From Tepidiformaceae bacterium (GTDB lineage Bacteria > Chloroflexota > Dehalococcoidia > Tepidiformales > Tepidiformaceae), in NCBI GenBank assembly GCA_958295975.1, contig OY282446.1, positions 1,217,289 to 1,281,288 of the forward strand: 64,000 nt of DNA, given 5' to 3'. The notes below the pieces were generated by a model. That model did not search any database and was not told where the DNA came from. It saw only the letters and a list, made by a program, of their open reading frames with translations. The translations under genes were made by a program, and so were the position numbers. Positions 44,115 to 48,349 of this stretch are shown piece after piece (position 1 is the first letter of the stretch; each line of letters begins with the position of its first letter).

Positions 44115-44761
44115 ACGCCCGTCTCCGCGGCGGGGCAGCCAGCCGCCAGCGGGCAGCCGCCGCAGCGCGGGGCGCGCGCCGCGCAGGTCCGCCGCCCGTG
44201 TTTGATGAGCAGCATGTGGAAGCGGTAGTAGCGTTCCGGCGGCACGAGCGCCTCCAGCCGTTCGTGCGCGCGCTCCGCCGTGGTTCCGGGGGGGACCAGC
44301 CCCAGCCGTTTGGCCACGCGCTCGACGTGCGTGTCCACGGGCAGGGCGGGGCGGCCCAGCGCGAAGAGCAGCACGCAAGCCGCCGTCTTGGGGCCCACGC
44401 CGGGCAGCCCCCGCAGCCAGGCGCGCGCCTCCTCCAGCGGCTCCTCGGCGAGGAAGGAGAGGCGCCAGTCGGGGGCGCGCGCGCGCACGGCCTCGAGGAT
44501 GCGCTGGATGCGCGGCCCCTTCTGTTGCGCCAGCCCGCCGCCGCGGATGGTCTCGATCAGCTCGTCGGCGGGCGCGTCGGCCACCGCCGCCCAGTCGGGG
44601 TAGCGCCGCATGAGCTGGACGAAGGCGCGCCCGCTGTTGCGGTCGGAGGTGTTCTGGGAGAGGACGGTGAGCACCAGTTCGGCCACGGCGTCGCCATGGG
44701 GACGGGCGCGCGGCTCGCCGTAGAGGCCAGCGAGCGCGGCCATGACGGTTTCGGCGTCCAT
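44111..44761 (-). CDS. nth: Endonuclease III-like DNA glycosylase
   Basis: A 216-residue HhH-GPD DNA glycosylase. The helix-hairpin-helix is LRGLPGVGPKTAACVLLF with its catalytic Lys, the catalytic Asp is in LPVDTHVERVAKRLGL, and the [4Fe-4S] cluster ligands are CAARAPRCGGCPLAAGC. It removes oxidised pyrimidines. It is nth-type by these features; a closely related specificity cannot be excluded. TAGGAT precedes the ATG by 6 bases. Confidence 0.92.
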   Translation of the reverse strand: MDAETVMAALAGLYGEPRARPHGDAVAELVLTVLSQNTSDRNSGRAFVQLMRRYPDWAAVADAPADELIETIRGGGLAQQKGPRIQRILEAVRARAPDWRLSFLAEEPLEEARAWLRGLPGVGPKTAACVLLFALGRPALPVDTHVERVAKRLGLVPPGTTAERAHERLEALVPPERYYRFHMLLIKHGRRTCAARAPRCGGCPLAAGCPAAETGV

Positions 44762-44803: not shown

Positions 44804-44815
44804 TACGATGCCCCC
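44804..44815 (+). promoter_or_regulatory. Leaderless-type -10 box for selD
   Basis: TACGAT, a 6-base spacer, then ATG at 44816. It places the selD start upstream of the in-frame TGA. Confidence 0.6.
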
Positions 44816-45862
44816 ATGACCGCGCGCGAGATCAGGCTCACCGATCTGACCAGCTGCGGCGGCTGAGCGTCGAAGGCGGGGCCCGGGGCCCTGGCGCAGG
44901 TGCTGTCGCCGCTCGTCCGTTCCTTCGATCCGGCCCGCCATCCCCAACTGCTCGCGGGGCTGGGGACGCCGGACGACGCCGCCGTCTACCGCCTGAACGC
45001 GCGCACCGCGGTGGTCGCCACGGTCGATTTCTTCGCGCCGCTCGTGGACGACCCGTGGCGGTACGGGGCCATCGCCGCGGCCAACGCCATGTCCGACGTC
45101 TACGCCATGGGGGGCGAGGTGGCGCTGGCCCTGAACGTGGCCGCCTTCCCCGAGGACCTGCCGCCCGAAACGGCGGCGGAGATCATCCGCGGGGGCGCGG
45201 AGAAGGTGGCGGAGGCGGGCGGCGTGGTGGCGGGGGGGCACACCATCTGGGACGCCGAGCCCAAGTACGGCCTGAGCGTGCTCGGCATCGCCCACCCCGC
45301 GCGCCTGCTGCGGAAGGACGCCCTGCGCGCGGGCGACCGCCTCTACCTGACCAAGCCGCTGGGCACGGGCGTCATCCTCGCGGCCACGGGCGGCGGCGGC
45401 GATTCCCCCTGGCTGGAGGGGGCGGTGGACTCGATGCTGCGGCTCAACCGCCACGCCGCCCACCTGGCGGTGAGCCACCGCCTGCGCGCGGCCACGGACG
45501 TGACCGGCTTCGGGCTGGCGGGCCACCTGTGGGAGATGGTCGAGCGCTCCGGCGTGGCGGCTCGGCTCGACGCCGCGGCGCTGCCGCTCCTGCCCGGCGC
45601 GCGCGAGGCCGCCGCCAACGGCGCGCACACCGGCGGCGAGGGGCGCAACCGCGATTGGGTGGGCGATCGCTTCTCCGCGGACGCGGACGCGCCCGCCGAG
45701 CTGGCGGCCATCGCCTTCGACCCGCAGACCTCGGGCGGGCTGCTGCTGGCCTGCCCGGCGCGCAGGGCGGCGGCGCTGGAGGAGGCCTTCGCCGCCGCCG
45801 GCGAGCCCCTCTGGCCCATCGGGCGCGTGACGCGGGGCGAACCCCGCATCGAGCTGCGCTAG
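44816..45862 (+). CDS. selD: Selenide, water dikinase SelD, itself a selenoprotein
   Basis: SelD makes selenophosphate from selenide and ATP, the selenium donor for selenocysteine and selenouridine. Read from the ATG at 44816, codon 17 is TGA (44864-44866) in TSCGG-Sec-ASK, the site of the catalytic Cys17 of E. coli SelD, with the conserved Lys three residues on. After the TGA the frame stays open through 348 codons in total and carries SelD motifs: PDDAAVY, VDFFAPLVDDPWRYGAIAAA, AMGG, VAGGHT, DVTGFGLAGH, FDPQTSGGLL. TACGAT lies 6 bases before the ATG. Automatic calling would truncate it at the TGA. A GC hairpin follows the TGA, but a standard bacterial SECIS is not obvious. Confidence 0.92.
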
Positions 45863-47041: not shown

Positions 47042-48349
47042 GTGCTCCCCGTGGACCCGACCGCCCCCCTGCCCCTGCGCCTGCGCGCGCTCGACCAGGA
47101 GCGCCAGCGCCGCTACCGCCGCCACCTCGCCTTCTACGAGGGGGAGCAGTGGACGGGGCGGGCGCGCCGTGGCGAGCGCCGCCTCGTGCTCAACTACGCG
47201 CGCGCCTTCGTCGAGAAGATCACCAGCTACCTGTTCGAGGGGCGCGCCCTGCGCGTGCGCCCGCGCGACCCGCTGGACGCGGCGGCGGCGGAACGGGCGC
47301 GCGTGGCGGAGCGCGCCTGGCGCGAGGTGGAGGAGACGAACGGCCTCGCGCGGCTCGATTTCGAGACGGAGATCGACTGCGCCGTGCTCGGCGACGCCGT
47401 CTGGAAGGTCGTGTGGGACGCGGAGGAGGGCTGCGTGCGCGTCTCCGCGCCCGACGTGCAGGGCATCCACGTGTGGCGCCGCCCCGACGACGCGGCGCGC
47501 ATCACGGCCCTCGCCTCGCAGTACGAAGTGGGGCGGGAAGCGCCGGACGCGGCGCGCGCGGGCGTCTCCGACGCGCTCGTGACCGAATACTGGACCGACG
47601 CCGCGTTCGAGCTGTGGCGCGGGAACGAGCTGGCGCGGCGCGGGCCGAACCCGTACGGCTTCATCCCCTTCGTGGTCTTCCCCAACCTGAGCGAGCCGAA
47701 GCGTCCGTGGGGATCGAGCGACCTCGCCGCCATCGCCGAATCGAACCGCGAGCTGAACCGCGCCTTCAGCCAGCTGAGCCAGATTCTGGAGCTGTCGGGC
47801 AACCCCATCGCGGTGCTGGAGGGGGTGGCCGGGGCGCGCGACATCGCCGTGGAGCCGGGGGCCGTGTGGGAGGTGCCGGAGCGCGCCCGCGCCTACCTGC
47901 TGGACCTGCTGGAGGGGGGCGGCGCGGCCCTGCACCGCGACTACATCGACCTCGTCTACCGCACGCTGCACGACCTCGGCGAATCGCCGCGCACGGCCTT
48001 CGGGCAGAACCCCGCGGGGCTGAGCGGCGTGGCCCTGAACGTGGAGCTGGACCCGGTGGCGCGCAAGGTGGCGCGCAAGCGGCTCATCCGCACGCCCGCC
48101 TACGAGCGCCGCGCCACGCTGGCCCTGCGGCTGCTGGCGCGGCACGCCGGGCTGGCCATCGAGGGGCTGCGCGCGGAGGCGCTCTGGGGCCCGGTGCTGC
48201 CCGCCGACCGCTCGCGCCAGGTGGCGGACGAGCGCGCGCTGGTGGAGGCGGGCATCCGCTCGCGGCGCACGGCGGCGGAGCGGCTGGGCGAGGAGGACGC
48301 GGCGGCGGAGTGGGCGCGCGTGCGCGAGGAGCGCGCCGCCCTGGGCTGA
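47042..48349 (+). CDS. Phage portal protein (SPP1 gp6-like)
   Basis: A 435-residue portal protein of tailed phages, the dodecameric ring through which DNA enters the capsid. Typical features are an N-terminal YRRHLAFYEGEQW segment, LVLNYARAFVEKITSYLFEG, a middle wing region (YGFIPFVVFPNLSEPKRPWG), AIAESNRELNRAFSQLSQIL, and a C-terminal coil ending EWARVREERAAL. The GTG start has GGAGGTTCGCC before it. No terminase, protease or capsid gene is next to it. It is full length and in good frame, so it may be kept for a function. Confidence 0.85.
   Translation: MLPVDPTAPLPLRLRALDQERQRRYRRHLAFYEGEQWTGRARRGERRLVLNYARAFVEKITSYLFEGRALRVRPRDPLDAAAAERARVAERAWREVEETNGLARLDFETEIDCAVLGDAVWKVVWDAEEGCVRVSAPDVQGIHVWRRPDDAARITALASQYEVGREAPDAARAGVSDALVTEYWTDAAFELWRGNELARRGPNPYGFIPFVVFPNLSEPKRPWGSSDLAAIAESNRELNRAFSQLSQILELSGNPIAVLEGVAGARDIAVEPGAVWEVPERARAYLLDLLEGGGAALHRDYIDLVYRTLHDLGESPRTAFGQNPAGLSGVALNVELDPVARKVARKRLIRTPAYERRATLALRLLARHAGLAIEGLRAEALWGPVLPADRSRQVADERALVEAGIRSRRTAAERLGEEDAAAEWARVREERAALG

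What the first reader, a model, noticed from the sequence alone, without database searches (positions are those of the whole stretch)
44816..45862. SelD is itself a selenoprotein (in-frame TGA at codon 17)
The frame from ATG 44816 has TGA at 44864-44866, exactly where E. coli SelD has its catalytic Cys17, with the conserved Lys three residues on. The SelD sequence continues unbroken downstream, and a -10 box sits 6 bases before the ATG. Standard gene calling would lose the catalytic N-terminus. It implies that the genome has selA/selB/selC and other selenoproteins. A canonical bacterial SECIS hairpin is not clear after the TGA, which is odd; there is only a GGGCC/GGCCC hairpin.
Basis: partly seen in the sequence, partly recalled or inferred. 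Interest (0 to 1): 0.8.

Follow-up and report, generated by a model that had tools for sequence, protein, structure and literature searches.

The report
SelD enzyme carrying selenocysteine itself
This Chloroflexota bacterium makes its selenium-activating enzyme (SelD) with selenocysteine at the active site, read from an in-frame UGA; the arrangement is known from other microbes, but a gene finder would lose the catalytic N-terminus here, and the RNA signal looks like two neighbouring hairpins.

Summary
The frame from ATG 44816 has TGA at 44864-44866 in the catalytic position of SelD (SCGG-U-ASK), and the 348-aa product passes the NCBIfam SelD cut-off. Of 108 SelD loci covering the site, 101 have TGA and 7 Cys codons. 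In the same order, nine genomes lack SelD and also SelA, with no convincing tRNA-Sec. At least two more selenoproteins occur in this genome and all eight congeners searched: a SelW-like CVPU protein and a TGGU peroxiredoxin. The signal is probably a tandem hairpin. A TANNNT box 6 nt before the start suggests a leaderless mRNA. Sec-SelD is a long-known kind; this is a well-supported new member.

The parts
44804..44809 (+). -10-like box TACGAT ending 6 nt before the start codon; probable promoter of a leaderless mRNA
   Evidence: Conserved TAnnnT next to the start in most family members; the same spacing recurs at other coding-like starts in the window, peak at 6 nt
44816..45862 (+). selD, selenide water dikinase, 348 aa with Sec at residue 17
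   Evidence: TIGR00476 353 bits, NF002098 314 bits; Pfam AIRS and AIRS_C
44864..44866 (+). UGA read as selenocysteine (catalytic residue)
   Evidence: Aligned TGA in 101 of 108 SelD loci, Cys codon in 7; complete Sec machinery
44877..44893 (+). SECIS hairpin 1: CGGGGCC-CGG-GGCCCUG, loop 17 nt after the UGA, G in second loop position
   Evidence: 7 bp, -11.4 kcal/mol, meets the published bSECIS model; across Sec-type genes stems are longer than synonymous recoding gives, 5.21 vs 3.72 +/- 0.19
44893..44910 (+). SECIS hairpin 2: GGCGCAG-GUG-CUG(U)CGCC with one bulged U, loop 33 nt after the UGA
   Evidence: Codons +9, +10, +13 are the three most synonymously constrained of 125 conserved columns; CAGGUnCUG resembles the fdhF CAGGUCUG apex; -7.5 kcal/mol

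Best explanation
The gene encodes selenophosphate synthetase SelD as a selenoprotein. The mRNA, probably leaderless, is translated from ATG 44816. At codon 17 the ribosome meets UGA; SelB carrying Sec-tRNA-Sec recognises an RNA signal that starts about 10 nt downstream and inserts selenocysteine, which acts with the neighbouring Lys in making selenophosphate from selenide and ATP. Selenophosphate feeds SelA, which makes Sec-tRNA-Sec, so the enzyme depends on its own product. Shown here: the frame, the Sec/Cys site, the complete machinery, the co-loss, other selenoproteins, and selection on the RNA. Inferred: Sec insertion itself, the catalytic role (from the known family), which hairpin SelB binds, and the leaderless start.
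For: Frame and family match. tRNA-Sec UCA, SelB with its C-terminal SelB-wing_3 domain, SelA. TGA at the same codon in 101 of 108 loci, Cys in 7. In 38 genomes of the order, the nine without SelD also lack SelA; for tRNA-Sec four of the nine had no hit and five only weak hits, of which the three checked are tRNA-Ser(GCU). SelW-like CVPU and peroxiredoxin TGGU in this genome and all eight congeners searched. Synonymous constraint and hairpins after the UGA, weaker in Cys homologues.
Against: No protein or mRNA data. In the window sequence alone the fold of the whole region is no better than shuffles (z -0.17; synonymous null z -0.03); the signal shows only per hairpin and across relatives. Rfam has no match here.
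Confidence: 0.96

Rival explanations
1. The UGA is a true stop and a shorter SelD starts at a downstream codon such as GTG 44900 (320 aa), giving a SelD-like protein without the catalytic residue.
For: This is what mechanical ORF calling gives.
Against: Residues before the UGA are conserved and belong to the SelD profile; the start codon and -10 box are conserved upstream; Cys homologues read straight through the same site; GTG 44900 is the loop of hairpin 2 and its Val wobble base is free, so it is not kept as a start codon.
Confidence: 0.02
2. UGA is read through by a near-cognate tRNA or by general reassignment of UGA (for example to Trp), not as Sec.
For: None specific.
Against: A dedicated tRNA-Sec, SelB and SelA are present; the UGA positions found align with the catalytic Cys in three unrelated families, not with Trp.
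Confidence: 0.01
3. Sec-SelD is right, but only one of the two hairpins is the SECIS; the other is incidental or serves some other purpose. This is a rival to the tandem-SECIS detail, not to the Sec-SelD reading.
For: A single hairpin suffices in fdhF (from established knowledge; sequence) and seems to in the SelW-like gene here; hairpin 1 has the fdhF position, hairpin 2 the fdhF-like apex, so either could serve alone.
Against: Both are kept beyond synonymous expectation across Sec-type genes; both are weaker in Cys homologues.
Confidence: 0.45

Closest known systems
Sec-containing SelD of other bacteria and archaea (Zhang 2006 PMC1794560; Mariotti 2015 PMC4561486)
   Same: Same enzyme, same Sec position, Cys homologues in related lineages; SelD is described as one of the two most widespread bacterial selenoproteins
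   Different: Here in a Dehalococcoidia (Chloroflexota) lineage that the passages read do not discuss; the motif is CxxU, reported in about 5.6% of single-domain Sec-SelDs in the ocean survey (PMC2398784)
Bacterial SECIS of E. coli fdhF and the bSECIS consensus (PMC13188914)
   Same: Stem-loop just after the UGA, G in the first two loop positions, 16-37 nt spacing; CAGGUnCUG apex resembles CAGGUCUG of fdhF
   Different: Two consecutive hairpins; the fdhF-like apex has its loop 33 nt after the UGA, against about 18 nt in fdhF

Membership tests
Selenophosphate synthetase SelD | Full-length match above the curated cut-off | tested here: met
   TIGR00476 353 bits vs 125; NF002098 314 vs 299
Selenophosphate synthetase SelD | Cys or Sec in the N-terminal loop followed by Lys three residues on | tested here: met
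   CGGU-ASK, aligned with Cys in seven homologues
Selenophosphate synthetase SelD | Selenide-dependent ATP hydrolysis to selenophosphate | not testable with these tools
   Needs an enzyme assay
Bacterial selenoprotein | In-frame UGA aligned with Cys of homologues | tested here: met
   101 TGA, 7 Cys codons of 108
Bacterial selenoprotein | SelA, SelB and tRNA-Sec in the genome | tested here: met
Bacterial selenoprotein | Sec physically present in the protein | not testable with these tools
   Needs mass spectrometry or 75Se labelling
Bacterial SECIS (bSECIS model) | 3-9 nt loop with G in first two positions, 4-16 bp stem, 16-37 nt spacing, MFE at most -7.5 kcal/mol | tested here: met
   Hairpin 1 meets all; hairpin 2 meets them only with one bulged U, MFE exactly -7.5. 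My strict bulge-free version of the model is met by 57 of 77 Sec genes and 3 of 7 Cys genes, and E. coli fdhF fails it, so this test alone discriminates poorly
Bacterial SECIS (bSECIS model) | SelB binding | not testable with these tools
   Needs a binding assay

The most novel reading that the evidence does not exclude
The selD mRNA of Chloroflexota and several other phyla carries a two-part SECIS: a variable, length-compacting first hairpin and a near-invariant second hairpin with an fdhF-like GGU apex that SelB reads at about 33 nt from the UGA, here on a leaderless message.
Probability: 0.35. Interest if true: 0.5.

Novelty: new member of a known kind. Interest (0 to 1): 0.3.

Why it matters
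It shows that selenium-dependent translation machinery is complete in a Dehalococcoidia lineage, and that automatic annotation of these genomes would cut SelD just after its catalytic residue. The natural Sec and Cys versions in one family, with and without the RNA signal, give a clean comparative set for working out what bacterial SECIS elements need. The tandem hairpin, if confirmed, would add a variant to a signal whose diversity is poorly understood.

Tried and rejected
Molybdopterin oxidoreductase (formate dehydrogenase family) hits have no in-frame TGA; no selenouridine synthase SelU. Single-sequence folding and dinucleotide shuffles gave no signal; Rfam none; RNAalifold on the mixed 77-sequence set gave no structure, probably because the hairpin 1 stem exists in two registers and one lineage group uses a different hairpin. 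General read-through and the truncated-start reading were considered and rejected.

Full report
Observation. The frame from ATG 44816 to TAG 45862 contains one in-frame TGA at 44864-44866 and otherwise reads through as a 348-residue SelD...RLTDLTSCGG-U-ASKAGP.... The protein with Cys at that site scores 353 bits against TIGR00476 (cut-off 125), matching from residue 7 of the protein and position 1 of the model, and 314 bits against NF002098 (cut-off 299); Pfam gives AIRS and AIRS_C. Mechanical ORF calling gives a 320-aa product from GTG 44900 that lacks the catalytic site.

Machinery. The window lies in a single-contig genome of 2.40 Mb (estimated 96% complete). It holds one tRNA-Sec above the Rfam cut-off (69.6 bits vs 47), called tRNA-SeC with anticodon TCA by ARAGORN; one SelB above the cut-off, with EF-Tu-like domains and the C-terminal SelB-wing_3 domain; and one SelA (512.7 bits vs 267.9). 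The three genes and selD are scattered around the chromosome, not in an operon (positions).

Comparative evidence. A scan of 84,980 species gave 80 named SelD loci; the closest, at about 80% identity, come from Dehalococcoidia/Chloroflexi metagenome bins. Some bin names (IRC, APA) hint at sponge samples, but this is only my guess from the names. A search of the 38 held genomes of the order found SelD in 29. Together 108 loci cover the site: 101 TGA, 6 TGC, 1 TGT. Some loci are the same genome seen through both collections; there are 77 distinct Sec-type and 7 distinct Cys-type sequences. The nine genomes without SelD (G002, G010, G013, G022-G027) also lack SelA. For tRNA-Sec, four of them gave no hit and five gave only 49-50 bit hits; the three fetched are tRNA-Ser(GCU) by ARAGORN. 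The one Cys-type member of the order, G012, keeps SelA and a tRNA-Sec(UCA) next to its selD, so there the residue differs without loss of the system.

Other selenoproteins. A SelW-like protein with CVPU, and a peroxiredoxin with TGGU in the place of the peroxidatic Cys, carry TGA in this genome and in all eight congeners. Molybdopterin oxidoreductases have no in-frame TGA, and SelU is absent. The congeners have further TGA-containing thioredoxin-fold hits not found in this genome.

SECIS. Folding the window sequence alone is uninformative. Across relatives it is not. In 62 Sec-type genes (13 sequences, mainly Rokubacteria, with a different single hairpin were set aside) I compared codon choice in 125 columns with a conserved amino acid; all columns share the same tree, so relatedness is controlled. 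The three most constrained are codons +9 (Leu CTG 93%, expected 43%), +10 (Ala GCG 97%, expected 37%) and +13 (Leu CTG 90%, expected 43%); Gln +11 is also raised, while Val +12 between them is not constrained. This is what a hairpin CAG-GUN-CUG demands: fixed stem, free third loop base. The paired fraction of this 6-bp hairpin is 0.860 vs 0.640 +/- 0.019 under synonymous recoding with each gene's own codon usage, and the longest stem of the upstream hairpin is 5.21 vs 3.72 +/- 0.19 bp; none of 300 recodings reached either value. These last two nulls ignore shared ancestry, so they should be weighed less than the column comparison. In the seven Cys-type genes the two hairpins are weak or absent (mean z 0.29 and -0.75, against -1.88 and -2.64 in Sec-type). 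An exception is L067 (Armatimonadetes bin), TGT with the hairpin sequence largely kept and selB present, which looks like a recent Sec-to-Cys change; such remnants are reported (PMC1794560).

In the window, hairpin 1 is 44877-44893 (loop 17 nt after the UGA, -11.4 kcal/mol) and hairpin 2 is 44893-44910 (loop 33 nt after the UGA, -7.5 kcal/mol, one bulged U). They share base 44893 at their outermost pairs, so not every pair can form at once. Both fit the consensus quoted in PMC13188914, hairpin 2 only at its limits. By position hairpin 1 matches the fdhF hairpin; by sequence hairpin 2 does (CAGGUnCUG vs CAGGUCUG; fdhF sequence checked). An alternative pairing, CCUG with CAGG around GCG, would also use several of the conserved bases and was not tested apart. 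In the same genus the SelW-like gene has one 6-bp hairpin with its loop 19 nt after the UGA, and the peroxiredoxin one long hairpin with its loop about 29 nt away. Which hairpin SelB binds in selD is open; my inference is that both contribute.

Start and promoter. TACGAT lies 6 nt before ATG 44816 and the same arrangement is kept in most family members. In the window, TANNNT boxes before candidate starts peak at exactly 6 nt (7 cases against 0-4 at other distances), and 11 coding-like frames have such a box 4-8 nt before a start, including the divergent neighbour at 44761. This suggests that leaderless transcripts are common here; it is inference from sequence.

Known or new. SelD as a selenoprotein is long established (PMC1794560, PMC4561486). 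The motif is CxxU, as in 63 of the 77 distinct Sec-type sequences here, whereas an ocean survey found CxxU in about 5.6% of single-domain Sec-SelDs (PMC2398784). The paper search gave no study devoted to Chloroflexota selenoproteins; that search covers only open-licence papers. I file this as a new member of a known kind, with a possibly new SECIS layout.

Noticed in passing
window, e.g. 44761 (-), 46566 (-), 42490 (-), 10769 (-), 27388 (+), 58520 (+): TANNNT boxes 6 nt before start codons recur, suggesting that leaderless mRNAs are common in this organism.
   Followed up: partly
L067: An Armatimonadetes-bin SelD has TGT (Cys) but keeps most of the SECIS sequence, and its genome has selB: a likely recent Sec-to-Cys change with a fossil signal.
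   Followed up: partly
L051, L065, L086, L087, L097 (Rokubacteria bins): Sec-SelD genes with a different, single long palindromic hairpin after the UGA (CUCCUGGAGAUCUCCAGGAG) in place of the tandem hairpins.
   Followed up: no
47042-48349 (+): A phage portal-like protein (SPP1_portal, 42.8 bits) stands between a ClpS-like and an epoxide hydrolase-like gene; whether other phage genes surround it was not checked.
   Followed up: no
L122 (G012): In this relative selA, Cys-type selD and selC are neighbours, while in the window's genome they are scattered.
   Followed up: no
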